Shown: positions 8,781 to 44,966 of the stretch, piece after piece | Layout of the letters: each line of letters opens with the position of its first letter | Numbering within the stretch: the stretch's first letter is position 1 | Source of the DNA: Mycobacterium sp. Root265 | GTDB lineage: Bacteria; Actinomycetota; Actinomycetes; Mycobacteriales; Mycobacteriaceae | Direction: 5' to 3' | Assembly: GCF_001428895.1 (NCBI RefSeq) | Contig: NZ_LMJA01000005.1 | Coordinates: forward strand, 1 to 64,000 | DNA: 64,000 bases | The notes under the pieces: model-generated | The model's input: the letters and a program-made list of their open reading frames with translations, nothing else | Told to the model about the DNA's origin: nothing | Databases searched by the model: none | Program-made: the position numbers and the translations under genes

Positions 8781-9451
8781 ACAGCGAGGCCGTGCGCCCG
8801 AAGCGCGGTGACCAGCCCGTCCGGTCGCTGGCCGGTGGGCAGCGGGTCGACCAGCGCGAAGGCGCAACCCACCGCGCGGGCCCCGCCGTCGGCCTCCTCG
8901 CTGTCACCGACCATCAGCGCATCGGCGGGCTCGACACCCAGCCGCGCCAGTGCGGTTTCGAAGATCGCCGGGTCCGGCTTGACCGCGCCGACCTCGAAGG
9001 ACAGCACGTATTCGTCGGCCGCGGTACCGATGGCGACCAGCGCAGGCCGCAGGTCGAAGGCGATGTTGGACACCACCGCCGTCTTGATCCCGGCCTCGCG
9101 CAACCCGTTCAGGGCGGCCGCGGTGTCCGGGTACGGCGTCCAGGACGCCGGGTCGACCAGTTTGGGATACAGCGCGGCGGCATCCGCACCGGTGAGCCCG
9201 GACTCGCGCAGCACATGTAGATACGCCTCGCGGTGCAGGTGCGGTTCCAGATCGCGGTTGGCCCAATTGTGCTGCTGCTCTTCGGACATCGGCACCGAAC
9301 TGCCGGTGGGGGCGGTGACCCGGCGCATCAGCTCGGCCTGCACGTGACCGTCCACCGCCTTCTCGTCGACGGTGATGCCGTCGAACCAGCTGTCGTCTTC
9401 CTCCAGCCGGAAGAGGGTGCCGGAGAAATCGAAGAGCACGGCGCTGATCAC
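8777..9451 (-). CDS. HAD-superfamily hydrolase
   Basis: 224 residues from a GTG start. Motif I reads DFSGT, so the nucleophile Asp is present but the usual second Asp of DxD is Ser. Motif II is VSN, motif III the Lys in AVKPD, and motif IV GDSEEAD. The missing general acid/base Asp is seen in some HAD branches (dehalogenases, phosphonatases), so phosphatase activity should not be assumed. It follows eis by 15 bases and is the last gene of the leftward sigma-eis-HAD run. Confidence 0.8.
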   Translation of the reverse strand: MISAVLFDFSGTLFRLEEDDSWFDGITVDEKAVDGHVQAELMRRVTAPTGSSVPMSEEQQHNWANRDLEPHLHREAYLHVLRESGLTGADAAALYPKLVDPASWTPYPDTAAALNGLREAGIKTAVVSNIAFDLRPALVAIGTAADEYVLSFEVGAVKPDPAIFETALARLGVEPADALMVGDSEEADGGARAVGCAFALVDPLPTGQRPDGLVTALRAHGLAV

Positions 9452-9466
9452 GGGGTGCCATCCTTC

Positions 9467-10705
9467 CTAGAAGTGGTCGGGGATCGCGGGTGCGACGGGC
9501 CAGCCGAAGGCTACCGCGGCCCGCAGCGCCGAGCCCGGGGTGAGTTCGTCGACCAGGCCCGCGGCGACCAGTTGCGTCAGATTGGTGCCACCCAGATAGA
9601 CGGCGCCGAGGTCGCGCGCGGAGATCGCGATGTCGGCCGGCGCGTCGGTGCTTTCGCAGGCGGCGTCGTGGAGGCCACCCCGCAGCCGGTAGCGGCCGGT
9701 GTTCCACGGGCAGAACGCGTCCCGCACCTCCAGCACGATGTCGACGGGTGCGGCATACCGGCGCAGCGCCAGCGCGCGGCCCACGTCGACCAACCGCACG
9801 AAGATGCCGTCGACAACCTCGCATTGCAGTGCACGCTGGTCGGCCGGCAGGTAGCGCACCGGCTCGTCCACCGCCGCCCCGTCGTACTTGATGCTGCGGA
9901 CCAGGTCGATATCCAGCAGGAAACGCCAGATACGGGCGTAGGCGCGTGGATTGGTGGCGCGCACCTCCTCGATGTGCAGGGTGCCGTTGGGCCCGGTCGC
10001 CGCCCAGTCGGACTTGGGCCGGTAGATCGCGAAACCGCTCGGGGTGCCGTCGGGTTCGTGGTGCAGGGCGAACCGGATCCGGCCGCTGTCCTTGCGCCGT
10101 TCGTCGTTGTCGTGGATGTGGTAGTCCCACCACGGGCGCGGCCGGTCCATCCGGCCGGGTAGGCCCGCGATCGCCCGGTCGTAGATCGCCGGGCCGTGGG
10201 CCAGCAGTGTCGCGGCGTCGGTCTCGGTCACGCTTCCGTCGCCGAGGTCGACCTCCGGCCGGAATCCCAGGTCGCGTACCTGGCCGGTCAACACGGTGTT
10301 CTGGCTGGCCAGCCCGTAGCCGAATCGGCCGTAGATCATGGTCTCGGAGGCGAACAGCATGGCCAGGGCCTCGGTGCCGCGGGCCCGGATGCCGTCGAGC
10401 TGGTAGCGCATCATCTGCGTCAACAGTCCCTGGCGACGGTGCGACGGTGACACGGTGACGGCGGTGACCGCGGCGACGGGCACCAGCGCACCGCCGGGCA
10501 GGATCACCTGCTTGCGGTAGTCGCCGGCCGTGGAGGCCCACCGGGTCCCGTCATGGAAACCGAACATCCGGTCCAGGTCGGTGATGGTTCGGGACAGCTC
10601 GGTCTCGTCGGGTCGCGGATCCTTCAGGAACACCGAGTACAGCGCATGGTCGAAGGTCACGAAATCGTCGTCGTCGCGGACGGTGCGCAGGGTCAGGTCA
10701 ACCAC
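9467..10705 (-). CDS. eis: Eis-type GNAT N-acetyltransferase
   Basis: 412 residues, the size of mycobacterial Eis. The first GNAT domain has the acetyl-CoA loop VTVSPSHRRQGLLTQMM near 85-101. A second GNAT-like region and an SCP2-like C-terminal domain follow. The protein ends in Phe, and in Eis the C-terminal carboxylate takes part in catalysis. Eis acetylates several amines of aminoglycosides and protein lysines. The start is GTG, 10 bases after the sigma factor gene, so it is probably co-transcribed with an ECF sigma factor; I recall no such pairing in M. tuberculosis. Confidence 0.9.
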   Translation of the reverse strand: MVDLTLRTVRDDDDFVTFDHALYSVFLKDPRPDETELSRTITDLDRMFGFHDGTRWASTAGDYRKQVILPGGALVPVAAVTAVTVSPSHRRQGLLTQMMRYQLDGIRARGTEALAMLFASETMIYGRFGYGLASQNTVLTGQVRDLGFRPEVDLGDGSVTETDAATLLAHGPAIYDRAIAGLPGRMDRPRPWWDYHIHDNDERRKDSGRIRFALHHEPDGTPSGFAIYRPKSDWAATGPNGTLHIEEVRATNPRAYARIWRFLLDIDLVRSIKYDGAAVDEPVRYLPADQRALQCEVVDGIFVRLVDVGRALALRRYAAPVDIVLEVRDAFCPWNTGRYRLRGGLHDAACESTDAPADIAISARDLGAVYLGGTNLTQLVAAGLVDELTPGSALRAAVAFGWPVAPAIPDHF

Positions 10706-10715
10706 ATGCTCATGT

Positions 10716-11960
10716 CTACCGTGCCGCCCCCTGTGAGCGCGCGGCCTTTTTCTCCAGTACGCCGCGTTCGCGCTCGTTGGCGGTCAGGCCGGCCGCGGCG
10801 GTGAACTCGGCGGCGGCCTCGGCGTCGCGGCCGAGCCGCGCCAGCAGTTCACCGCGCACACTGGGCAGCAGGTGGGAGCCGTCGAGCCCGTCGATGGCAT
10901 CGACGATCAGCAGTGCCGCCGCCGGCCCCTCGGACATCGCGACGGCCACCGCCCGGTTCAGTTCGACGATCGGGGATCCGGCGATCTGCAGCAACGCGTC
11001 ATAGAGCGCCACGATGCGGGCCCAGTCCGTGTCGGCGGCCGTCGGCGCCACGGCATGGCATTCCGCCAGCGCGGCCTGCAGAGCGTAGGGGCCCCAGCCG
11101 CGCTGCCCGCGGGCCTGGTCGGCGCGCTGCATGGCGGTGACACCCCGACGGATCTGGGCGCGGTCCCAGCGGGTGCGGTCCTGGTCCTCCAGCAGGATCG
11201 GATTGCCGTGTGCGTCGGCGCGGGCGGCGAACCGCGACGCCTGGAATTCCATCAGCGCCACCAGGGCGTGCACCTCCGGTTCGGTCGGGGTCAGCGCCTG
11301 CAGTATCCGCCCCAGACGCAAAGCCTCACTGCACAATTCGTCGCGGATCCAGCGCTGTCCGGCAGAGGCCGCGTAGCCCTCGTTGTAGATCAGATAGATC
11401 ACCGCCAGCACCGCGGACAGTCGCGAACCGAACTCGGCGCGGTCGGGCACCTCGAACGCGGTCCCGGCCAGTGTCTTCTTGGCGCGGGTAATCCGCGCGG
11501 CCACCGTAGCCTTGGAGGTCAGCAACGCCCGGGCGATCTCGTCGGTGCTCAGCCCGCCGACGACCCGCAGGGTCAGCGCGATCTGCGATTCGCGGGTCAG
11601 CGAGGGGTGGGCGGCGATGAACACCAGCCGCAGCACGTCATCGTCGATGCGATCGGGATCCCACGCGTCCTCGACGCGATCCTCGAGTTCACGCGCCAGC
11701 ACCGCGTACTTGGTGTCCAGGTTGTCCTGCCGGCGCCACAGGTCGATGGCCTTGCGTTTGGCGACGGTGGTCAGCCAGGCCCCGGCGTTACGGGGCACGC
11801 CGGTGGACGGCCACTGCGCCAGGGCGTCCACCAGAGCTTCCTGCGCCAGATCCTCGGCGAGTCCCACATCGCCGAACGCGCGGGTCAGGGTGGCGACGAT
11901 CTTGGCGGCTTCCATCCGCCAGACGGCATCGACGGTGTCGCGCAGGTCGGTGTCTGCCAC
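10716..11960 (-). CDS. ECF sigma factor with long C-terminal TPR-like extension (ECF42/DUF6596 type)
   Basis: 414 residues from a GTG start. Sigma-70 region 2 spans about 15-80 (AEDLAQEALVDALAQWP, then RKAIDLWRR). Region 4 is near 130-170 (GLSTDEIARALLTSKATVAAR). A C-terminal helical extension of about 230 residues resembles the SnoaL-free, TPR-containing ECF42 group. These sigma factors lack a classical anti-sigma and are usually paired with DGPF/YCII proteins; one is encoded at 14186-14644. The small membrane protein at 11977-12207 is upstream and eis downstream. Confidence 0.85.
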   Translation of the reverse strand: MADTDLRDTVDAVWRMEAAKIVATLTRAFGDVGLAEDLAQEALVDALAQWPSTGVPRNAGAWLTTVAKRKAIDLWRRQDNLDTKYAVLARELEDRVEDAWDPDRIDDDVLRLVFIAAHPSLTRESQIALTLRVVGGLSTDEIARALLTSKATVAARITRAKKTLAGTAFEVPDRAEFGSRLSAVLAVIYLIYNEGYAASAGQRWIRDELCSEALRLGRILQALTPTEPEVHALVALMEFQASRFAARADAHGNPILLEDQDRTRWDRAQIRRGVTAMQRADQARGQRGWGPYALQAALAECHAVAPTAADTDWARIVALYDALLQIAGSPIVELNRAVAVAMSEGPAAALLIVDAIDGLDGSHLLPSVRGELLARLGRDAEAAAEFTAAAGLTANERERGVLEKKAARSQGAAR

Positions 11961-11976
11961 GCCGCCACGCTAGCGC

Positions 11977-12207
11977 CTAGGTGGCGTCGTGGTCCTGCGC
12001 GTCGGCGCTGAAGAAGAACATGCTGGCCACGAAACTGGTCAGCGAGAGCAGGCCGGCACCCAGCGACAGGCCAATGTTGTCGAATCCGAAGGTGCCGACG
12101 GACATCGCGAACCCGACGATGGCGATCATGCTCAGGAAGAGCGCCCAGGTGCTGAGCGCTTCCGAGGTGCGGGCGGGTGCTGCGGCGACAGCGGTGCGGT
12201 CGTCCAT
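11977..12207 (-). CDS. Small two-helix membrane protein, unknown function
   Basis: 76 residues with two hydrophobic segments (about 18-40 and 45-67), a polar N-terminus and a short acidic tail. I do not recognise a family. It lies 16 bases upstream of the ECF sigma gene on the same strand. It might tether or sense for that sigma factor, but it lacks visible anti-sigma motifs; this is only an inference from position. Confidence 0.65.
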   Translation of the reverse strand: MDDRTAVAAAPARTSEALSTWALFLSMIAIVGFAMSVGTFGFDNIGLSLGAGLLSLTSFVASMFFFSADAQDHDAT

Positions 12208-12270
12208 CGGGCGGGTCCTATCTGGGCGAAGCTACGTGGTCAGCGCATCTGTACCCCGCTTCGCCTCCCG

Positions 12271-13872
12271 CTAACCCACCGAACGTCCTGCGCCCTCCCA
12301 GAACTGCGCGCGGACGGCCTTCTTGTCGGGCTTGCCCAGCGCGGTGATCGGCACCGAATCGACGACGACGACCTGCTTGGGTACCTGTACCGATCCCTTG
12401 CGCTCCTTCACCGACGCCTGGATCTCGGCGATCATGGTCGTCACCGCATCCTCGGACGTGTCGGCGTCGGGCCGCAGCACCACCACCGCGGTCACCGCCT
12501 CGCCCCACTTCTCGTCGGGGGTGCCGATGACACACACCTGGGCGACCGACGGATGTTCGGCCACAACATCTTCGACCTCGCGCGGGAAGACGTTGAAACC
12601 TCCGGTGACGATCATGTCCTTGGTGCGGTCGACGATGAAGTAGAAGCCGTCCTCGTCCTCGCGGGCCAGGTCGCCGGTGTGCATCCAGCCGCCCTTGAAG
12701 GTGTCGGCGGTCGCCTCGGGCAGGTTCCAGTAGCCACCGGACAGCAGGGGACCGGCCACGCAGATCTCACCGACCTCGCCCTGGGGCACCGGCTGGCCGT
12801 CCTCGCCGAGCAGCGCCACCTTCGCGAACAGGGTGGGCCGCCCGCAGGAGGTCAGCCGCTTCTCGTCGTGATCCTTCTTGGACAGGTAGGTGATCACCAT
12901 CGGCGCCTCGGACTGCCCGTAGTACTGGGCGAAGATCGGCCCGAACCGCCGGATCGCCTCGGCCAGGCGCACCGGGTTCATCGCCGAGGCGCCGTAGTAC
13001 ACGGTCTCCAGCGAGGACAGGTCGCGGGTGTGGCTGTCGGGGTGGTCCATCAGCGCGTAGATCATCGACGGCACCAGCATCGTCGCGGTGATCTTCTGCT
13101 CTTCGATCACCCGCAGCACCTCGGCGGGATCGAACTTCGTCAGCACGATCAGCTCGCCACCCTTGACGATGACCGGGGTGAAGAACGCCGCGCCGGCATG
13201 CGATAGCGGCGTGCACATCAGGAAGCGGGGATTCTCCGGCCATTCCCATTCGGCCAGCTGCACGGTCGTCATCGTGGTGATCGACTGGGTCGTGCCGATG
13301 ACGCCCTTGGGCTTGCCGGTGGTGCCGCCGGTGTAGGTCAGGCCGCCGATGTGATCGGCGGGCAGGTCCGCAGCGACCAGCGGTTGCGGCGCGTACTTGG
13401 CGGCTTCGGCGCTGAGGTCGGTGGCCACATCGGCGAGCTCTTCCGGGACCGGTCCGATGGTCAGCACCTGCTTGAGCGAGGGCACCTTCTCCAGCAGTCC
13501 CAGCGCGCGCTCGGTGAACATCGGGTTGGGGTCGATGATCAGCGAGGTGACCCCGGCGTCGGACAGCACGTAGGCGTGATCGTCCAGCGAGCCGAGAGGG
13601 TGTAGTGCCGTGCGGCGGAAGCCCTGGGTCTGGCCGGCGCCGATGATCATCAGCACCTCGGGACGGTTGAGCGAGAGCAGCCCGACGGCGGCGCCGGTTC
13701 CCGCCCCGAGGGCCTCGAAGGCCTGAATGTACTGGCTGATGCGGTCGGCGAGCTCGCCGCCGGTCAGCGTGGTGTCCCCGAGGAACAGCACGGGACGGTT
13801 CTTGTGGCGCTTCAGCGCGCCGACGGTGAGGTGGCCGGAGTGCTGGAAATGGCGGAGATGCTCGTCACTCAT
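12271..13872 (-). CDS. fadD8: Fatty-acid-CoA ligase FadD8-like
   Basis: 533 residues, class I adenylate-forming enzyme. The AMP-binding P-loop is YTGGTTGKPKG near 184-194. The acyl-CoA ligase signature TGDLAREDEDGFYFIVDRTKD and the hinge GGFNVFPREVE follow, with the catalytic Lys in the C-terminal GKPDKK. It activates a carboxylic acid to the acyl-adenylate and then the CoA thioester. Its place before an Rv0552-like amidohydrolase and menC matches Rv0551c (fadD8). The true substrate is not known. Confidence 0.85.
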   Translation of the reverse strand: MSDEHLRHFQHSGHLTVGALKRHKNRPVLFLGDTTLTGGELADRISQYIQAFEALGAGTGAAVGLLSLNRPEVLMIIGAGQTQGFRRTALHPLGSLDDHAYVLSDAGVTSLIIDPNPMFTERALGLLEKVPSLKQVLTIGPVPEELADVATDLSAEAAKYAPQPLVAADLPADHIGGLTYTGGTTGKPKGVIGTTQSITTMTTVQLAEWEWPENPRFLMCTPLSHAGAAFFTPVIVKGGELIVLTKFDPAEVLRVIEEQKITATMLVPSMIYALMDHPDSHTRDLSSLETVYYGASAMNPVRLAEAIRRFGPIFAQYYGQSEAPMVITYLSKKDHDEKRLTSCGRPTLFAKVALLGEDGQPVPQGEVGEICVAGPLLSGGYWNLPEATADTFKGGWMHTGDLAREDEDGFYFIVDRTKDMIVTGGFNVFPREVEDVVAEHPSVAQVCVIGTPDEKWGEAVTAVVVLRPDADTSEDAVTTMIAEIQASVKERKGSVQVPKQVVVVDSVPITALGKPDKKAVRAQFWEGAGRSVG

Positions 13873-35582: not shown

Positions 35583-36569
35583 TCAGGCAGCCATGCGGGC
35601 CCCGGCGGAGGCGCACAGCGCGTTGACGTGCGCGACCGCATGCGCGATGTGGTTCACCCCGGGCACCGCGTCGGTGGTGTCATAGCTGACGTGCGGTCCG
35701 GTACCGGCGGCGACGAACTGAAGCGCCAGCACCGCCGCCTCGATGGCGTCGAACGGCGTGACGCCCTCGACCGAGTCCGACGGCAACTTCGCGATGGCGG
35801 GATTGTTCAGCAGTTGGCCCGCCAGACCGGCGGAGGGGCCCAGCGCGGCCAGCCCGCCGAGTCCGGCCAGCGGACCGAGCAGATCGATCAGCAGTTGCAC
35901 CACGCCCCGGGCGATCGACTCGACCATCGGTAGCGGGGTGGGCGCGAGGCCGATGTCCACGCCCATCGAATAGAAGTTCCGGATGATCTGGCCCGCTCCG
36001 TTGAGCGGGGTGGCGGAGTAGAGGTCGATGCCGACCGCCCGATTCTTCGGTCCGTTCGCCGCGTAGCGCCATCGCGGGTCGGGGGTGGCGATGCGGACCG
36101 GACTGATGCCCGCACCGCCCGGGTCGGGTGCGCCTCCGCCGGTGACCTTCTCCGGACGCATCGGGTCGCCGAAGCTGAAACCGCCGATGAAATCCCCGAA
36201 TCGATGCTCCAGCACACCTCCGGGCAGCAATTCCAGGTAGATCTCGCCGGCGCACTGGGCGCCCTGACTGTAGCCCCCGAGCCCGAACGTCTGGTTCGGA
36301 TGGGCATTGATCCAGTCGATCGCCCAGCGCTTGCCGGTCGCCACGCTCTGCCGGTAACTCGGGGCGTTGGCATCGGGTCCGCCGACCGGCCCGAACGACC
36401 ATGGTGACTGGACGGGCACCTCGAACACCAGATCGGGGTCGGCGTTCTGCACGACCCACGAGCTGTAGCCGGTACCGGGCGGCGCCCAGGTACCTGAACA
36501 GGTCAACCATGCGTGCCGGACCCGGCGCACGCCGCGGATATCGGCAAGCAGGTCCCCGAAATCGGTCAT
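35583..36569 (-). CDS. LysB-like mycolylarabinogalactan esterase (phage-type)
   Basis: 328 residues from the ATG at 36569. The N-terminal VRHAWLTCSGTWAPPGTGY and the G99-Y-S101-Q-G nucleophile elbow match mycobacteriophage lysin B, an alpha/beta hydrolase that releases mycolic acids from arabinogalactan during phage exit. D182 and H293 fall where the triad Asp and His would be expected. There is no signal peptide. A Leu/Gly-rich insert near 215-265 is longer than I expect. It overlaps the lysA-like gene by 4 bases (ATGA) in the lysA-lysB order used by phages. Confidence 0.82.
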   Translation of the reverse strand: MTDFGDLLADIRGVRRVRHAWLTCSGTWAPPGTGYSSWVVQNADPDLVFEVPVQSPWSFGPVGGPDANAPSYRQSVATGKRWAIDWINAHPNQTFGLGGYSQGAQCAGEIYLELLPGGVLEHRFGDFIGGFSFGDPMRPEKVTGGGAPDPGGAGISPVRIATPDPRWRYAANGPKNRAVGIDLYSATPLNGAGQIIRNFYSMGVDIGLAPTPLPMVESIARGVVQLLIDLLGPLAGLGGLAALGPSAGLAGQLLNNPAIAKLPSDSVEGVTPFDAIEAAVLALQFVAAGTGPHVSYDTTDAVPGVNHIAHAVAHVNALCASAGARMAA

Positions 36570-38209
36570 CGCGGTGCGCGTTTCGCCGGCGCTTTGGCCG
36601 GCGCTTTCTTCGCGGCCTTGGCGGCGGGCCGCTTGCGCGGCGGCCGGGGGGTGTGCCCGTTGGTGTGACCGTTGGTGGCGGCCGGCACCTCGGTGTCGGC
36701 GAAGGCGCTGGTGGACAGATCGTTGGAGGCCCGCCACTGAATGGCGAACTCCATCAGTTCCAGCAGGACATCACCGGAATCGCGTTCGATGCCGTCGGAA
36801 AATGTGTGGCGCCAGGCGATCTGTTCGTTGATCGGCACGATCTGCTCGAAGGCGTCGGTATGCCCGGCGTGATCGGTGCCATCGGGCTGCCGACGCATCC
36901 ACGGGCCCCGATCGGCGTCGTTGACGATCTCGTTGAAATCGCGCGGATGCCGCGAGTAGGCGTACCGCCAGGCGAACGGCCATCCGTTCGCCGCGGTCCC
37001 CGTGGTGGCATTGCGGATCTCTTCTGCATCGGCCATGGTGATGTCTCCTGTCTGAGTTGTCAAAGCAGTTAGTGGGGAACCTATTTCGCGGCAGCGTTGC
37101 CACCGGAGCTTGCGGTCTTCCAGGCCGTTGAGCCCGCCGTTGATGGCTCGGGTGACACCTTCGAGATCGTTGGCGTCACACATCGCGTTGATCTGCGGAC
37201 GTGCCACCGTCCAGTACCAGATCGCCCCCAGGAAGCTGAACTTGTCGGTCCCCAGCTGTTCGGGAGAGTCCACGAAGAATGTCGGGCTGGGCACCAGGCC
37301 GCGACTGTGGGCCCACTGCGACACCTTGGTGTAGTTGTGCCGGCCGGTGACCTGGATCGGGCCGCGGCCCTTGAACCGGCGGCCGTCCCCGGGATGGGTG
37401 TTCCCGAGATCGGCGCGGCCCTCGTAGGCGCCGCCGTCGGCGATCTCTTCCATGAACTTCAGGCCGCCGGATTCGTGCCCGATCTGGGCCAGCCACATGG
37501 TGATTCGCTCCGGGGTGTTGCACCCGGACTCCTGCAGTGCCTGTGTCACGGCCGGTAGCAGAGCGCGGTAGCGGTCGAACGAGATACTGCCGCCCATCGC
37601 ACGCATCAGGTTCTCCGCAACCTGATCGCTCGGCGCGTTCGGTGCGATCGGATTGACGTCGATATCGGCGTAGCAGTAGCCCTTGGGCGGGATCAGCGTG
37701 GCCGCCTGATCGAAGCTGATCCAGTAGTTGAAGGGTTTGAACCCACTGTCGGCGATCCACAACGCACGTTCGCCGGGGGTGTCGTCGTAGCCCATGCACG
37801 CGACATAGTGGAAAACGGTGCCGCCGCGGTACGCAGGTGACGTCGTGCCCTTGACGGCGCGCGGGTAGTTCGATGGTGGTGCCACCCAGTTCATCACCAC
37901 GCCGAATCCGCTGTTGATCGAGGCCACCACATCGGACCACAACCGGTCTTTCTGCTGCGGGGTCGGCGGGTCATCCGTCATGTTGACCGAGGTGTACCGG
38001 GCATCGCAGACCTTCTTGTCGAGCACCCGCTCGATCAGGCCGATGAAGTCGGTACCCGCTGTGGTGGTGCCGATCTCGCGTGCCAGATCGGCCTCGGCCA
38101 GCCGGACACCCCGGGACTCGAGCACGACCTGAGTCGATGCCGGTCCACACCAGAACGGTGTCTCCTGCACGACGATCGTCCGGTCATACGGCAACAGTTT
38201 CTCGGTCAT
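36566..38209 (-). CDS. LysA-like endolysin: C39-type peptidase plus GH19 muramidase
   Basis: 547 residues from the ATG at 38209 (ATG 38224 is also in frame; the MTEKLLPYDR start matches phage LysA). The C39-like peptidase domain covers about 10-185 with C21 in FWCGPAS and H134 in FHYVACMGYD. The GH19 lysozyme/chitinase-like domain covers about 200-375 with E246 in GHESGG, followed by MEEI. A C-terminal part of about 155 residues is unfamiliar and ends in a Lys/Ala/Pro-rich tail after an HTNG repeat. It degrades peptidoglycan in phages. It lacks a signal peptide, and no holin is visible. Confidence 0.83.
   Translation of the reverse strand: MTEKLLPYDRTIVVQETPFWCGPASTQVVLESRGVRLAEADLAREIGTTTAGTDFIGLIERVLDKKVCDARYTSVNMTDDPPTPQQKDRLWSDVVASINSGFGVVMNWVAPPSNYPRAVKGTTSPAYRGGTVFHYVACMGYDDTPGERALWIADSGFKPFNYWISFDQAATLIPPKGYCYADIDVNPIAPNAPSDQVAENLMRAMGGSISFDRYRALLPAVTQALQESGCNTPERITMWLAQIGHESGGLKFMEEIADGGAYEGRADLGNTHPGDGRRFKGRGPIQVTGRHNYTKVSQWAHSRGLVPSPTFFVDSPEQLGTDKFSFLGAIWYWTVARPQINAMCDANDLEGVTRAINGGLNGLEDRKLRWQRCREIGSPLTALTTQTGDITMADAEEIRNATTGTAANGWPFAWRYAYSRHPRDFNEIVNDADRGPWMRRQPDGTDHAGHTDAFEQIVPINEQIAWRHTFSDGIERDSGDVLLELMEFAIQWRASNDLSTSAFADTEVPAATNGHTNGHTPRPPRKRPAAKAAKKAPAKAPAKRAPR
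37034..37049 (-). promoter_or_regulatory. Internal ribosome site and ATG inside the lysA-like gene
   Basis: AGGAGA (37049-37044) lies 7 bases before an in-frame ATG at 37036 (Met392 of the lysA-like protein). Initiation here would yield a separate 156-residue product (36566-37036) starting MADAEEI, comprising the unfamiliar C-terminal part. Confidence 0.5.
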
Positions 38210-38280
38210 CACAACCCCGTTCATTCCGGTTCACCCGTGCGGTACTGCGATCGTCATCCACGCCGCGACGGGGGATATGC

Positions 38281-38346
38281 GTAGAGCCGTACTCGATTCT
38301 GCCGCCGGCGCGTACGTGCCGATCTGCGAAGTGAGTACCGCTCTAC
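38281..38346. promoter_or_regulatory. Imperfect inverted repeat between divergent lytic and hydrolase arms
   Basis: Arms GTAGAGCCGTACTC (38281-38294) and GAGTACCGCTCTAC (38333-38346) match at 13 of 14 positions with a 38-base spacer. They lie in the 197-bp gap between lysA and the DUF2235 gene. This is a good candidate for a looping or dimer-of-dimer operator that regulates both arms. Confidence 0.5.
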
Positions 38347-38406
38347 CCGGATCGGCGTCTCCACCGACTCCTACCGTGGGCCCATCGGCTCGTCGAAGGA
38401 GCAGGG

Positions 38407-39513
38407 ATGAAGAACATCGTGATCTGTCTCGATGGCACTTCCAACGAGGTGAAGGCCAGGGCTGTCACCAACATCTTCAAGATCGTGGAAATGCTGCAGC
38501 TCGCCGACCCCGACCGCCAGCAGGTGTATTACGACCCCGGTGTCGGCACGCTCGCTGCGCCGGGGTCCTGGAGCGCGCTGGGCAGGAAGCTCTCGGTACT
38601 CGGAGGTCTGGCCCTCGGGCACGGCATCCGGGAGAACATGGCCGAGGCCTACACCTACCTCATGCGCACCTGGGAACCCGGGGATCAGATCTTCATCTTC
38701 GGGTTCAGCCGCGGTGCGTACACGGCGCGCGCGTTGTGCGGTCTGCTCCGGTCGGTGGGGCTGCTGCGGCCCGGTTCGGAGAACCTCGTGCCGTACGCCG
38801 TTCGCGTCTACGCCCGAAATCCCGGGGATTCCAACCTTTCCGGTCCTGAGGGGTGGGACCGGATCGACCGCTTCGCCACGACGCTGAGCCTGCCCACTCC
38901 CGGTGAAACCGTGTCCTGTCCGGTCCGCTATCTCGGTCTGTTCGACACCGTCAAGGCCACCAGCTTCGTCGGCCCGGACTTCAGGTGGCCGTGGACGCGC
39001 CAGCTGATCAACGTCGAGACGGTGCGACACGCGGTGTCCATCGACGAGCAACGCCGGCCTTACCAGCCCTATCTCCTGAAGTTCCCGCCCGAAGGCCAAC
39101 GGTTTCCGCAGATGGAAGAGGTCTGGTTCGCCGGTATCCATTCCGATGTCGGTGGCGGATTTCCCGATAACCCGGCACTGGGCGACATTTCGATGCGCTG
39201 GGTACTGGACGGGGCGATCACCGCGGGACTGCGTGTCCGCAATGACGAGTACGCCGGGAGATACACCCTGTCCGGGGAGCATGCCTCGGCGCCGGTCAGC
39301 CGGATGGAATGGCGCGGGCGCCTCGCGGGCACCCCGCCGATCGGCAGCAGGCGCATCGTCCCCGCCGGTGCCGTCGTGCACGGAAGCGTCGCCGTCCGGC
39401 GCGACGGTGACCCTCGGTACGGCCCGAACCTGCCCGCGGATGCGCTGTTCCTCGACCGCGACGACTGGGTCGGTGAGCCCGGCACTCCCTTGGCCGGGGT
39501 GATGTCATGGTGA
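38407..39513 (+). CDS. DUF2235 alpha/beta hydrolase (Tle1-like)
   Basis: 368 residues with a strong GAAGGAG ribosome site. The N-terminal KNIVICLDGTSNE and the elbow GFSRGAYTAR with S101 define DUF2235, the family containing type VI phospholipase effectors Tle1. D180 (LGLFDTVKA) and H245 (IHSDVGGG) complete a plausible Ser-Asp-His triad. There is no signal peptide. It is the first of three overlapping genes and is divergent from the lysA-lysB pair. Lipase activity is inferred from the family. Confidence 0.85.
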   Translation: MKNIVICLDGTSNEVKARAVTNIFKIVEMLQLADPDRQQVYYDPGVGTLAAPGSWSALGRKLSVLGGLALGHGIRENMAEAYTYLMRTWEPGDQIFIFGFSRGAYTARALCGLLRSVGLLRPGSENLVPYAVRVYARNPGDSNLSGPEGWDRIDRFATTLSLPTPGETVSCPVRYLGLFDTVKATSFVGPDFRWPWTRQLINVETVRHAVSIDEQRRPYQPYLLKFPPEGQRFPQMEEVWFAGIHSDVGGGFPDNPALGDISMRWVLDGAITAGLRVRNDEYAGRYTLSGEHASAPVSRMEWRGRLAGTPPIGSRRIVPAGAVVHGSVAVRRDGDPRYGPNLPADALFLDRDDWVGEPGTPLAGVMSW

Positions 39514-41267
39514 GCCCGGACTACTGCACCGTCACGATCGTGGTGCAGGACCCGACCGTCGAACGCGACGGCAAGGTTCTCACCGCCGAGGTGCAGATCC
39601 CCCGGGAGGAACTCATCGACGGCCCGATGGGGTCCGCACTCTACGTGGTGGATTACGACGCCACCTCCCGCCGGATGTACCGGGCGGCGCCGACGAAAGA
39701 CGGTCCACCGCACTGGCAGAAGCGCGACGAGATTCTGGCCGATCCGGTGTTCCACGCGTGGAACGTGTACGCGATCGTCACCAGAACCTTGCGGCGGTTC
39801 GAGTCGGCGCTGGGACGGCGGGTGCGGTGGGGCATCCGCGGTCACCAACTCAAGGTGGTACCGCACGCTTTCGAGGACGCGAATGCGTTCTACTCACCCG
39901 AGGCCGAGGCGCTGTTGTTCGGCTACATCCGCCGCGGACCCAGTGCCTCGAACACCTACCTGTGTCTGTCGCACGACGTCGTCGCGCACGAGGCGACGCA
40001 CGCGCTGCTCGACGGTCTGCGTGGCAGCTTCATCTCGCCGTCGTCACCGGATCAGGCGGCCTTTCACGAGGCCTTCGCCGACATCGTCGCGCTGCTGTCG
40101 GTGTTCTCGTTGAAGGAGGCCGTGGAGTATCTGGTGGACCCGCGCAACGAAAACGAGTTCGTCGACAAGTCGGTGTTCAACCCGGAGCGGCTTGCCGAGA
40201 CGGACCTGTTCGGGCTCGGTGAGAGCCTGACCCACGTGAATGCACTGCGGCGTTCGGTGGGCATCGCGCCGACGCCCGGACTGCTCGACGAGCCCGGCTT
40301 TCACGAGGTCCATCGGCGGGGCGAGATCCTGGTCGGTGCCGTGATGCGCACCCTTCTGGTGGCGTGGGAAAGGCGCATGGAGGATCTTTTTCCCGGCGAG
40401 GACACCCTGATTCCGCGCAGAATTCTCGTCGAACAGGGCGCCGACATCGCCGATCTGCTGCTGACCATGAGTGTCCGCGCCATCGACTACACACCACCCA
40501 TCCACATCACCTTTGCCCATTTCCTGAGGGCGATGCTGACCGCCGACCGCGAGGTCCGCGCCGATGACAGCCGCTACAACCTGCGGAGCGCCCTGCGCGA
40601 GCAGATGGCCGGGTTCGGCATCGCCGGCACCACCCAGGATGGGGATGGTTGCTGGTGTCCGCCGAAACGCAAGGATGGCTTGCAGCGCAATGGGGTTCAC
40701 TTCTCTGCGTTGCAGAGCGATGACACCGAGATGTTCCGGCACATCTGGGGCAACCGCGGCAACCTGCACCTCAATCCACACGCCTTCACCCGCATCTCCA
40801 GTGTGCGCCCGTGCGTCAGGAGCGCACCGGATGACGGCTTTCACGTCCGCGAAACTGTCGTCGAGTGCACGCAGTACCTCAAGATCGCGGCCGGCGAACT
40901 GCCCGCCTACGGGTTGGCCCCGCTGGAGAAGCTCGACCCCGACACCCAGATCGAGCTTCGCGGGGGATCCACGCTGATCCTCGACGAATACGGCGACCTG
41001 AAGTTCGAGATCTCCGACAAACTGCCCAGCCTGCAAGGGATCGAGCCGGACGCCGACGCGGACGCGGACGCCGAAGCCGACCGCGAGCGCATCCAGCGGT
41101 GGAACCGCCGGATCGCCTACCTCTATGAGTCCAGAAGCCTCACCGACGGGCCGCGCACTGCCCATGCGCTGGCGCTGCGGCACCGTGACCGCAACGCGGC
41201 CGAGAATCCGGAGGCTGCCGCCGCAGAGATCGTGCGGCGGGCCCGGGGAGCGCGAGAGGAGTGGTGA
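39507..41267 (+). CDS. Gluzincin metallopeptidase, function unknown
   Basis: 586 residues; start ATG 39507 or GTG 39510, overlapping the DUF2235 stop. The zinc motif is H161-E162-A-T-H165 with the third ligand probably E188 in HEAFAD, the gluzincin (M4-like) arrangement. A C-terminal region of about 220 residues has no recognisable domain and contains an acidic Asp-Ala repeat near 515. No signal or propeptide is evident, unlike secreted M4 enzymes. It is probably a cytoplasmic protease or a protein delivered by lysis. Confidence 0.8.
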   Translation: MVSPDYCTVTIVVQDPTVERDGKVLTAEVQIPREELIDGPMGSALYVVDYDATSRRMYRAAPTKDGPPHWQKRDEILADPVFHAWNVYAIVTRTLRRFESALGRRVRWGIRGHQLKVVPHAFEDANAFYSPEAEALLFGYIRRGPSASNTYLCLSHDVVAHEATHALLDGLRGSFISPSSPDQAAFHEAFADIVALLSVFSLKEAVEYLVDPRNENEFVDKSVFNPERLAETDLFGLGESLTHVNALRRSVGIAPTPGLLDEPGFHEVHRRGEILVGAVMRTLLVAWERRMEDLFPGEDTLIPRRILVEQGADIADLLLTMSVRAIDYTPPIHITFAHFLRAMLTADREVRADDSRYNLRSALREQMAGFGIAGTTQDGDGCWCPPKRKDGLQRNGVHFSALQSDDTEMFRHIWGNRGNLHLNPHAFTRISSVRPCVRSAPDDGFHVRETVVECTQYLKIAAGELPAYGLAPLEKLDPDTQIELRGGSTLILDEYGDLKFEISDKLPSLQGIEPDADADADAEADRERIQRWNRRIAYLYESRSLTDGPRTAHALALRHRDRNAAENPEAAAAEIVRRARGAREEW

Positions 41268-42592
41268 TGCGCAGTATCAAGAGGGCGGGGATCCGGGCCT
41301 ACAACGTGGGATTCGGTGATTGCGTGCTGTTGTGGGTCGATTACGACGATGCGGTCCGCCGCGCGGTCCTCATCGATTTCGGATCCACCGAGTTGCCGGG
41401 CGACTTTCCCAAGGATCACATGGACCGCATCGCCGAGGACATCCGCGATGTGGTGCTCGGACGCACCGCGAACGCGGATGGCTCGATCACCCGGGGCCGT
41501 CTGCAGATGGTCGTCGCCACCCATCGCCACGCCGACCACATCAGCGGATTCGGCCGCGCAAAGGCGGGATCCATCATCAGGGATCTGAACCCGCGCAGGG
41601 TCGTGCAGCCGTGGACCGAGGATCCGTTGCTGCCCACCGATGCCAAGGCGCCGCTCATGGACCGGCAAATGGTCGGCACGATGGGCGATATGCAGCTGTT
41701 CGCCGCCGGTGTGACGGCTGCATCCGCGAAGATGAATGCGCTGCAACGATTCCCTGACGGTGTCGGCGACCGTCTGCAGTTCCTCGGTGAGAAGAACATC
41801 TCCAACCGGGAGGCCGTCGACTGTCTGCAGACGATGGCTGCCGACGGCCGGGGACGCTACGTCAAGTACGGCGACGACCTCACCGACCAGCGACTGCTGC
41901 CCGACGTGACCATCAAGGTCCTCGGGCCGCCCACGCTGGCCGCCGCGCCGTCCCTGGCACGGCAGGCGCAGATCAACAATGAATTCTGGCACCTCGCGTC
42001 GAACTGGTCCCGAGCCGCTCAGGATGGGGACGCGACGTGCGACGACCTGTCGCCGCTGTTCGAGACGGCGACCGAAGCCGTGCCGCAGGCCGCACGCTGG
42101 CTGACGCCGCGCATCGACCGCGCGCATGCCGACAACATGCTCTCGCTGCTGCGGACCTTGGACTCGTCGCTGAACAACACCAGCGTGATCCTGCAGATCC
42201 GGATCGGCGAATCACTGCTCGTGTTCCCCGGTGACGCCCAGATCGAGAACTGGAGTTGGGTGTTGTTCGACGCCGATGAGAACACCGGCAATGCCCGGTT
42301 GCTCCACGATCTCGCGAACACCAACATCTACAAGGTGGGCCACCACGGAAGTCTGAACGCCACACCGAAAACTCTGTGGGAGAAGTTCATTCACCGCGGG
42401 GCGGAGGATTCCACCGCGAATCGGCGACTGATCACGCTGCTGTCGACCCTGGACGGCCGGCACGGCAGCCGCGAGGACAACACCGAGGTGCCCCGGCAGG
42501 CTCTGGTGCGGGCGCTCAAAGCGGAGTCGAATCTGTTCAGCACCGAGTTGCACAAGACACCGTGGTGGACCGATATCGAGGTGTCGATCTAG
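41267..42592 (+). CDS. Metallo-beta-lactamase-fold hydrolase, ComEC-like
   Basis: 441 residues from ATG 41267 (TGATG overlap; two in-frame GTGs just upstream). The start NVGFGDC matches the ComEC-type MBL NVGxGD motif. The metal site is H86-R-H88-A-D90-H91, followed later by FPGDAQ and KVGHHGS. A large insert separates them. This branch includes stand-alone nucleases or hydrolases of unknown role. It is the third gene of the hydrolase operon, and its end overlaps the convergent DUF2236 gene by 4 bases. Confidence 0.82.
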   Translation: MRSIKRAGIRAYNVGFGDCVLLWVDYDDAVRRAVLIDFGSTELPGDFPKDHMDRIAEDIRDVVLGRTANADGSITRGRLQMVVATHRHADHISGFGRAKAGSIIRDLNPRRVVQPWTEDPLLPTDAKAPLMDRQMVGTMGDMQLFAAGVTAASAKMNALQRFPDGVGDRLQFLGEKNISNREAVDCLQTMAADGRGRYVKYGDDLTDQRLLPDVTIKVLGPPTLAAAPSLARQAQINNEFWHLASNWSRAAQDGDATCDDLSPLFETATEAVPQAARWLTPRIDRAHADNMLSLLRTLDSSLNNTSVILQIRIGESLLVFPGDAQIENWSWVLFDADENTGNARLLHDLANTNIYKVGHHGSLNATPKTLWEKFIHRGAEDSTANRRLITLLSTLDGRHGSREDNTEVPRQALVRALKAESNLFSTELHKTPWWTDIEVSI

Positions 42593-43614: not shown

Positions 43615-43690
43615 GAATGTCCATTCTCTGATGTGAGTGAGCGGTATCGACTGAAATGTGCAGCCGTATATGGCGAAATGTGATCGATCA
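43615..43690. promoter_or_regulatory. Two palindromes in the DUF2236/TetR divergent gap
   Basis: The 254-bp gap contains GAATGTCCATTC (43615-43626) and the perfect TGATCGATCA (43681-43690), 55 bases before the regulator start. Either could be its operator. Confidence 0.4.
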
Positions 43691-43745
43691 TGAAGTGGCA
43701 TTCCCAGGATCTGTCGGTCACCGCAGAATGCGTTACCGTGAGGGT

Positions 43746-44966
43746 ATGTCTTCGGTCGGCCGCCCCGCGCAACCTGCTGTGCGTCGCCGGCCGCGTGATC
43801 GCAAGGCACAGATCGTCAAGGCCTCGGCCGATGCTTTCAGTGCGCTCGGCTACCACGCGGTCAGCATGGAGGAGATCGCCACTCGGGTGGGCATTTCGGC
43901 TGCGGCGCTGTACCGGCATTCGTCGAGCAAGTACGGACTGTTCCGGGACGCCGTCTTCGGTCTGGGTCAGCAACTGGTGGACAGCACCGATATCGGCGAT
44001 CCGGAACGTGATCCGGCCACCCTGCTGGCCGACCTCGTCGACGCCCTTGTGGAGACCGCGATCGCCAACCGCAGCTCCGGCGGGCTGTACCGGTGGGAGG
44101 GTCGCTACCTCAATGAGGATGATCAGCAGATCCTGAACGGGCAGATCGGGCTCGTCAACCGCAGGCTGCAGGAACCCCTGATCCGGCTGCGGCCGGAGCT
44201 CACTTCGCACGAACGCTGGACCCTGTCGTCGGCCGCGTTGAGCGTCATCGGCAGTGTCACCGATCACCGGGCCTCACTGCCCGTCAACGAGATGCGGGTA
44301 TTGCTGGCCGGCCTGGCCACCGCCGTGCTCTCGGCCACCCTGCCGGCCCCGTTCGAGTCACCCGAATCGAACCCGTTGACGCCCAGCGGCTCCGGCGCCG
44401 GCGGCAAATACGAGATGCTGTTGCATGAATCCCTGCTGCTGTTTCACAAGAAGGGATTCCGGGAGACCAGCATGGAGGACATCGCCGCGGCGGTGGGCAT
44501 CCAGGCATCCGGGATCTACCGGTACTTCCCGGGCAAGGCCGATCTGCTGGTCGCGTCCTACCGTCGCAGCGCCGACCGGGTGTCCGGAGATGTATCGAGT
44601 GTTCTTGCCGCGGAATCAGATCCGGAGCAGGCGTTGGCTCGTCTGATCGATCTGTATGTGGCCCGGTCGTTCCGGGAGCCCGAGATCGCCTACGTGTATT
44701 ACGCGGAACGCGGCAATGTGCCCGAGGCCGACCGGGGGGCCATCCGCAACATCCAGCGCTCCACGGTCGATGAGTGGGCGCGGCTGCTCGCCGCGGCGCG
44801 TCCCGAGTTCAGCCACGCACAGGCGAAATTCGCCGTGCACGCCGCATTCGGTCTGGTGGTCGATCTCGGCCGGCTGGTGCAGTACCAGGACACCGAGCAT
44901 TCCCGTGCCTGCGTGAAGCTGCTGATGGAGATGACGTTGTTGGGGCGCGAACCGCAACTGGTCTGA
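43746..44966 (+). CDS. Tandem TetR-family regulator (two TetR units fused)
   Basis: 406 residues from ATG 43746. Two complete TetR N-terminal HTH units are visible: SMEEIATRVGISAAALYRHS in the first half and SMEDIAAAVGIQASGIYRYF in the second. Each is followed by a helical ligand-binding part. A single chain could act as a pseudo-dimer. Such double-TetR proteins occur in mycobacteria. It is divergent from the DUF2236 gene, which it may control. Confidence 0.88.
   Translation: MSSVGRPAQPAVRRRPRDRKAQIVKASADAFSALGYHAVSMEEIATRVGISAAALYRHSSSKYGLFRDAVFGLGQQLVDSTDIGDPERDPATLLADLVDALVETAIANRSSGGLYRWEGRYLNEDDQQILNGQIGLVNRRLQEPLIRLRPELTSHERWTLSSAALSVIGSVTDHRASLPVNEMRVLLAGLATAVLSATLPAPFESPESNPLTPSGSGAGGKYEMLLHESLLLFHKKGFRETSMEDIAAAVGIQASGIYRYFPGKADLLVASYRRSADRVSGDVSSVLAAESDPEQALARLIDLYVARSFREPEIAYVYYAERGNVPEADRGAIRNIQRSTVDEWARLLAAARPEFSHAQAKFAVHAAFGLVVDLGRLVQYQDTEHSRACVKLLMEMTLLGREPQLV

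What the first reader, a model, noticed from the sequence alone, without database searches (positions are those of the whole stretch)
38407..42592. Candidate new system: DUF2235 hydrolase, gluzincin peptidase and ComEC-like MBL enzyme in one overlapping operon
Three hydrolases of distinct chemistry have overlapping ends (7 and 1 bases) and intact catalytic motifs: S101/D180/H245, HEATH plus E188, and HRHADH. None has a signal peptide. They are divergent from a lytic pair across a shared inverted repeat, so the five genes may form one unit acting on lipid, protein, nucleotide and wall. A phage-defence suicide module or an antagonism and lysis unit are both possible.
Basis: inference. Interest (0 to 1): 0.75.

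Follow-up and report, generated by a model that had tools for sequence, protein, structure and literature searches.

The report
Protease, nuclease and lipase defence operon
Three overlapping bacterial genes, for a protein-cutting, a predicted DNA-cutting and a lipid-cutting enzyme, look like a self-destruct kit against viruses, because related kits recur in unrelated bacteria, some of them beside known antiviral systems.

Summary
DUF2235/Tle1-like lipase (38407-39513), M4-like gluzincin (39507-41267) and ComEC-like MBL enzyme (41267-42592) overlap by 7 and 1 bases, with intact motifs. The core is the gluzincin-MBL pair: in 37 of 41 strong gluzincin loci the MBL gene is directly downstream, and their distances correlate (r=0.79). 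DUF2235 or patatin genes lie within about 7 kb in 21 of 41 loci, one probably unrelated. The triplet recurs on Rhizobium and Agrobacterium plasmids. Some relatives abut Hachiman HamAB or an LmuB-like ATPase, or lie near CBASS. The MBL family has 186-267 residues where ComEC has about 76, plausibly the gate of protease-activated MBL nucleases (PMC12799240). Best reading: a metalloprotease-gated pro-nuclease plus lipase, an abortive-infection module; a new variant of a known kind. Nothing was tested at the bench, the sensor is unknown, and no defence system shows among ten window neighbours. The divergent phage-type LysA/LysB are intact but absent from the 40 other loci; 'five-gene unit' is not established, 'defence suicide module' is supported by analogy.

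The parts
38407..39513 (+). DUF2235 / Tle1-like alpha/beta-hydrolase, 368 aa; predicted (phospho)lipase; S101, D180, H245
   Evidence: PF09994 1.4e-68; motif positions; nearest relatives in an 18-protein tree sit in caspase-MBL-DUF2235 and S8-MBL-DUF2235 rows
39507..41267 (+). Thermolysin-like gluzincin peptidase, 586 aa; HEATH 161-165, E188, D192; C-terminal third of unknown function
   Evidence: Peptidase_M4 4.6e-4, sub-threshold; H161, E162, H165, H187, E188, D192 at least 90% conserved among 27 non-redundant relatives; HExxH in 27 of 27
41267..42592 (+). ComEC-like MBL-fold enzyme, predicted pro-nuclease (ATG 41267; in-frame GTG at 41261 used for residue numbers)
   Evidence: NCBIfam/PADLOC matches; ComEC MBL domain 9ic4 best by profile (5.2e-14) and by Foldseek on a weak model (3.0e-5); HxHxDH in 27 of 27, HHG in 25 of 27
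41540..42172 (+). Central segment of the MBL enzyme (residues 94-304), much shorter in ComEC; candidate gating insertions at about 121-179 and 224-301
   Evidence: spacing 186-267 aa in 26 of 27 relatives against about 76 in 9ic4 (counted); lower conservation, 0.30; low pLDDT 121-179 and 224-307
36566..38224 (-). LysA-type endolysin, 552 aa (C39 peptidase + GH19-like), divergent neighbour; membership of the unit unproven
   Evidence: phrog_1519 1.6e-191; Pfam C39_2 and GH19; 65% to mycobacteriophage lysin A over residues 2-405
35583..36569 (-). LysB-type protein (mycolylarabinogalactan esterase by recall of phage LysB), 328 aa from ATG at 36569, overlapping the LysA stop; membership unproven
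   Evidence: phrog_102 3e-56; start and overlap read
38274..38353 (.). Imperfect inverted repeat between the divergent transcripts (arms 38274-38299 and 38328-38353); possible shared operator
   Evidence: best 14-mer pairing 13 of 14, 1 of 100 shuffles as good

Best explanation
The three genes are an intracellular conflict (anti-phage, abortive) module. The gluzincin and the MBL enzyme form a protease/pro-nuclease pair: the MBL enzyme is probably held inactive by insertions over its active site; when an unknown signal activates the gluzincin it cleaves these insertions, and the freed nuclease destroys DNA. The DUF2235 lipase, whose place patatin or other lipases take in relatives, is a second effector that damages the membrane; it may be released by the same protease. 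Shown by computation: the pair, its conservation, motifs, correlated descent, recurring lipase partners, defence-type neighbours of some relatives, and extra sequence between the two halves of the MBL core. Inferred: nuclease activity, gating, proteolytic activation, lipase target, sensor, cell death and phage protection.
For: 37 of 41 gluzincin loci (A1 profile, E<1e-80) have MBL directly downstream on the same strand; DUF2235 within about 7 kb in 11 and patatin in 10 of 41; the four profiles have no hit at E<=1e-5 in 19 control loci, 370,635 bases (caveats under evidence against). PEP/MBL distances of 27 non-redundant pairs: r=0.79, 0 of 2000 permutations. 13 of 51 plasmid records with the gluzincin appear among the 60 listed of 137 with DUF2235, each within 7 kb, against about 0.1 expected if independent in 72,556 records (my arithmetic; related plasmids counted singly). 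Neighbours: HamA2/HamB2 follow patatin-gluzincin-MBL in L139 and, by annotation, in L150; HamAB lie upstream with one gene between in L147; an LmuB-like ATPase ends 15 bases before gluzincin-MBL in L140; CBASS cyclase; SIR2. 6 of 20 annotated plasmid loci hold a CBASS cyclase, DUF1837, SIR2 or DarT; 0 of 4 control stretches of 49 kb do, though one has Shedu. ComEC is the nearest solved relative. PMC12799240 (outline with abstract, first sixth of the text, sections 8 and 9, and found passages) reports MBL pro-nucleases activated by trypsin partners in Hachiman and AVAST and by a caspase in Canu.
Against: No defence system among ten flanking window genes (PADLOC: only short matches of menG to mad2 and of the TetR gene to mad1, which look generic), so the locus is not in an evident defence island. 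The gluzincin model is useless (pLDDT 47.9) and the MBL model weak (54.3, from 3 sequences), so gating is not shown structurally. The extra MBL segment has nearly full occupancy (0.90-0.95), which also fits an ordinary domain. L155, L156 and L157 have the gluzincin but no MBL hit. HHG is not found in L139 and L145, and the second gluzincin motif as I wrote it is not found in L147, L154 and L158. DUF2235 is common without the pair. The lipase profiles were built from members of these very loci, so those match by construction, and the controls are mycobacterial and not random; L112, which holds an unlinked DUF2235, was not among them. Many plasmid loci are related to one another, and distances were not corrected for a species tree.
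Confidence: 0.6

Rival explanations
1. Antagonism or predation: the enzymes are cargo released or injected into competitors, the DUF2235 protein as a Tle1-type lipase effector and LysA/LysB to open mycobacterial walls.
For: PF09994 is named for a T6SS effector. The R. phaseoli plasmid with the triplet also carries a T6SS gene cluster, some 235 kb away in record coordinates. The mycobacterial cluster L027 also holds LysM/phage-tail-X and hemopexin-astacin proteins. Cell-wall hydrolases lie near gluzincin genes in L032, L149 and L152.
Against: No hydrophobic N-terminus in the five proteins and no delivery gene among the neighbours scanned; some relatives abut HamAB or LmuB-like genes or lie near CBASS, which act inside the cell. 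The catalytic domain alone is no proof of T6SS. The own genome was not searched for T6SS or eCIS genes.
Confidence: 0.15
2. Five-gene self-lysis unit: lipase opens the membrane from inside in place of a holin, letting LysA and LysB reach the wall, while the gluzincin and MBL enzyme destroy protein and DNA.
For: Lysins intact, overlapping, without signal-like N-termini, divergent from the triplet over an inverted repeat. G018 (L171) has a chromosomal LysA-type/cutinase-like pair divergent from an alpha/beta-hydrolase and a CHAT protease.
Against: No LysA/LysB match at E<=1e-3 in the 40 other gluzincin loci. LysA matches 16 of 298 genus genomes at E<=1e-40, own included; six such loci opened show no DUF2235, gluzincin or MBL match.
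Confidence: 0.12
3. A housekeeping turnover or stress operon of cytosolic hydrolases, with no role in conflict.
For: Window neighbours include metabolic-type genes and no defence system.
Against: Patchy: gluzincin match in 17 of 397 genus genomes, 12 of them strong, and in 4 of 396 of the phylum sample, own included; 25 of 51 plasmid records are conjugative, and some copies sit beside defence systems.
Confidence: 0.1

Closest known systems
Protease-gated MBL nuclease pairs (HamM with trypsin-HamA, Avs1 pair, CanA/CanC; PMC12799240)
   Same: ComEC-like MBL enzyme paired with a protease gene, correlated descent, relatives beside HamAB and LmuB-like genes, extra sequence between HxHxDH and the NxxS strand (that this is where HamM is cut, at I118 and I218, is my inference from residue numbers)
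   Different: Protease is a gluzincin, not trypsin or caspase; a lipase gene is added; no HamA, STAND or LmuB core found beside the window genes. The paper mentions other protease families; 'thermolysin', 'metalloprotease', 'DUF2235' and 'patatin' do not occur in its main text
T6SS Tle1 phospholipase effectors (PF09994)
   Same: Catalytic domain and Ser/Asp/His motifs
   Different: 368-aa protein in a protease-MBL operon; no T6SS gene among the neighbours scanned
PADLOC Lamassu LmuA (MBL type), Avs1a, DRT RTasMBL and candidate PDC-M48B
   Same: Weak profile matches of the MBL enzyme; stronger for the A. vitis relative, LmuA 2e-20
   Different: Core partners not found among ten window neighbours; the gluzincin matches no PADLOC model at E<=1
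Mycobacteriophage lysis cassette (lysin A, lysin B)
   Same: LysA and LysB type proteins, up to about 65% to phage lysin A
   Different: Flanked by non-phage genes in the four neighbours scanned by Pfam; holin not searched for

Membership tests
Protease-gated MBL nuclease pair (Tuck et al. 2025) | ComEC-like MBL enzyme with intact HxHxDH | tested here: met
Protease-gated MBL nuclease pair (Tuck et al. 2025) | Adjacent, co-inherited protease gene | tested here: met
   37 of 41 loci; r=0.79 without species-tree correction
Protease-gated MBL nuclease pair (Tuck et al. 2025) | Protease of trypsin or caspase type | tested here: not met
   M4-like gluzincin, HExxH plus E; thermolysins are the best solved matches, but only at E 0.2
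Protease-gated MBL nuclease pair (Tuck et al. 2025) | Insertions that block the nuclease active site | tested here: inconclusive
   extra 110-191 residues between the two core halves, but models weak
Protease-gated MBL nuclease pair (Tuck et al. 2025) | Cleavage by the partner activates DNase | not testable with these tools
   needs purified proteins
Hachiman / Lamassu / AVAST | Core sensor gene (HamB, LmuB, STAND) beside the pair | tested here: not met
   not found among ten window neighbours; HamAB in L139 and L147, LmuB-like in L140
T6SS Tle1 effector | Tle1-like catalytic domain | tested here: met
   PF09994 1.4e-68
T6SS Tle1 effector | T6SS or eCIS genes in the genome | not tested
   own genome not searched for them
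Prophage lysis cassette | Flanking phage structural genes | tested here: not met
   four nearest neighbours are CobW, Ppnp, MpaB, TetR by Pfam; farther genes not scanned for phage families
Prophage lysis cassette | Holin gene | not tested
   no search for small membrane proteins

The most novel reading that the evidence does not exclude
The five genes are one programmed self-demolition unit: a metalloprotease switch frees a gated DNase and a phospholipase, and the phospholipase takes the place of a holin so that captured phage lysins dissolve the mycobacterial wall, releasing a cell whose DNA, protein, membrane and wall are all digested.
Probability: 0.12. Interest if true: 0.85.

Novelty: new variant of a known kind. 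Interest (0 to 1): 0.62.

Why it matters
If true, it extends protease-activated nucleases, reported with trypsin- and caspase-type proteases (PMC12799240), to a metalloprotease class, and suggests that a lipase is a recurring third member. In the small DUF2235 group around the window gene the lipase is kept while the neighbouring protease changes (gluzincin, caspase, subtilase), which would make protease-switched killing a swappable design. The rhizobial triplet gives a directly testable model.

Tried and rejected
Viral origin: the gluzincin alone found no viral contig, its alignment 16 loci of at most 36% identity in the best segment, the MBL alignment one; 2 of 50,697 phage records match the gluzincin. 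Prophage reading: not supported by the four nearest neighbours. ARAGORN's tRNA-Thr at 39931-40021 lies inside the gluzincin gene and Rfam did not report it. Empty-site comparison through MpaB relatives showed that gene content beside menG and MpaB varies, but gave no clean empty site with the window's flanks. Gluzincin structure: model and fold search uninformative. L032's DUF2235 was first counted as a partner; the tree puts it with a paralogue group that includes the own genome's second DUF2235 (no support values printed), so 10 rather than 11 of 41 are credible, and 8 are in or directly beside the operon (window, L027, L028, L135, L136, L144, L145, L146). The A2 profile also picks up a second, divergent MBL class in S8- and caspase-linked rows; its spacing could not be compared. 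Literature: eight searches showed no gluzincin-MBL-lipase triplet in the listings seen; the library holds open-licence PMC papers only, and two listings were cut (20 of 192, 20 of 29). PMC12419801 was seen by passages only and does not describe it there.
Full report
What is there. The reported genes are present as described. A DUF2235/Tle1-like hydrolase (38407-39513), a thermolysin-like gluzincin (39507-41267) and a ComEC-like MBL enzyme (41267-42592) overlap by 7 and 1 bases; catalytic motifs are intact. On the other strand lie intact LysA (36566-38224) and LysB (35583-36569) genes of mycobacteriophage type. The four nearest neighbours are CobW, Ppnp, MpaB and a double TetR protein; the labels menG, geranylgeranyl reductase and polyprenyl synthase for farther genes are my recall, from no family search. 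The genome has 6.67 Mb in 30 contigs; its genus is Mycobacterium in the broad sense, judged from one relative of the same genus that is also held under a name.

The pair is the core. Among 397 genus genomes the gluzincin matches in 17 (12 strongly, 5 at E 1e-11 or weaker) and the MBL enzyme in 14; the phylum sample gave 4 of 396, own included; plasmids gave 51 of 72,556 records, of which 22 were opened. Of 41 loci with a strong gluzincin match (window, 14 genus, 22 plasmid, 3 phylum, 1 archaeal), 37 have the MBL gene directly downstream on the same strand. The four without are L031 (contig end), L155, L156 and L157. The weak genus loci L040-L043 fell below the threshold; a fifth (G311) was not opened as a region. 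The pair also occurs in a Thermoplasmata archaeon MAG, a planctomycete, Hymenobacter, Deinococcus, Paraburkholderia and Alphaproteobacteria. In 27 non-redundant pairs HExxH and HxHxDH are kept in all, HHG in 25, and the second gluzincin motif as written in 24; distances correlate at 0.79, without species-tree correction.

Lipase partners. DUF2235 lies within about 7 kb in 11 of 41 loci by profile and patatin in 10, and neither in 19 control loci. The two lipase profiles were built from members of these loci, so those match by construction, and the controls are mycobacterial and were not drawn at random; L112, with an unlinked DUF2235, was not among them. One DUF2235 case (L032) is probably an unrelated paralogue. 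The triplet with short overlaps is found in A. vitis and R. phaseoli (8953-10686, 10683-11969, 11966-13099 in both loci) and with small gaps in R. gallicum. In an 18-protein tree the window's DUF2235 groups with those of G367/G066, which follow a caspase and a second MBL gene downstream of a gluzincin-MBL pair, and with that of G316, in an S8-MBL-DUF2235 row. So the lipase seems kept while the protease changes. Against a tight bond, 156 of 394 genus genomes hold some DUF2235 match.

Defence context. HamA2 and HamB2 (PADLOC E 7.5e-146 and 0) follow directly after patatin-gluzincin-MBL in R. leguminosarum 248, with the same annotated order in A. tumefaciens H25/79; in R. leguminosarum Ta1k HamA and HamB come before the pair, with an S1/P1 nuclease gene between. 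In Hymenobacter volaticus an LmuB-like ATPase (3.9e-24) ends 15 bases before the pair. CBASS cyclases lie near three loci, SIR2 proteins near one. Counting CBASS cyclase, DUF1837, SIR2 or DarT, 6 of 20 annotated plasmid loci qualify (2 of the 22 opened have no annotation); L139, L150 and L153 are related. Four 49-kb control stretches of four of the same plasmids had none of these, though one held a Shedu nuclease and one a T6SS cluster. The window itself shows no defence system among ten flanking genes.

Mechanism. The nearest solved structure to the MBL family is the ComEC MBL domain, by profile (5.2e-14) and by Foldseek on a weak model (3.0e-5). Between HxHxDH and the following NxxS strand, ComEC 9ic4 has about 76 residues (counted from the alignment), this family 186-267 in 26 of 27 (one had no motif match). 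Within it, 121-179 and 224-301, segments I set after seeing the model, are less conserved (0.30) than the flanking and middle segments (0.39-0.60), though the C-terminal tail is lower still (0.26), and they have low model confidence. PMC12799240 (parts read) reports that HamM is cut at two sites by trypsin-HamA, that one cut suffices in the AVAST enzyme, and that CanC is activated by a caspase complex. By analogy the gluzincin would cut these stretches. This is inference: the MBL model rests on three sequences (mean pLDDT 54.3) and the gluzincin model failed (47.9).

LysA and LysB. LysA at E<=1e-40 occurs in 16 of 298 genus genomes, own included. Of six such loci opened, G018 shows a chromosomal, fused LysA-type protein and a cutinase-like gene divergent from an alpha/beta-hydrolase and a CHAT protease, which echoes the window; the other five were not annotated further. 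LysA and LysB have no match at E<=1e-3 in the 40 other gluzincin loci, but other cell-wall hydrolases lie nearby in L032, L149 and L152. This is suggestive, not proof, of a five-gene unit.

Verdict. A real, cross-phylum protease-MBL pair with recurring lipase partners, most likely an abortive defence module; a new variant of protease-gated nuclease systems. The five-gene lysis unit remains the boldest reading.

Noticed in passing
L027:1088-18731 (G367); L028 (G066): Large mycobacterial cluster with a 1503-aa unknown, LysM/phage-tail-X protein, hemopexin-astacin, gluzincin-MBL, caspase, second MBL and DUF2235 (families scanned in L027 only); may be a bigger conflict island.
   Followed up: partly
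L171:7976-18941 (G018): Chromosomal GH25-C39-GH19 lysin and cutinase-like gene divergent from a DUF900-like hydrolase, a CHAT protease and an unknown 470-aa protein.
   Followed up: partly
L188:4352-19854 (G054): DUF2235 and MBL genes beside a caspase, a TIR-nSTAND-WD40 protein and another protein that looks TIR-like.
   Followed up: no
L141, L143, L146, L149, L152: Very long gluzincin proteins (1111-1291 aa), in four annotated as S8 peptidase; S8 domain confirmed by Pfam in L141.
   Followed up: partly
window 43656-44966: One 436-aa protein with two TetR DNA-binding domains.
   Followed up: no
L112:9458-10429 (own contig, match at 111529-112200): A second DUF2235 gene of the same genome groups with L032 and a G013 paralogue, apart from the window's.
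   Followed up: partly
MT836994.1:4795-5865: A 9.5-kb faecal phage record encodes a gluzincin relative at 34% over 59% of the query.
   Followed up: no
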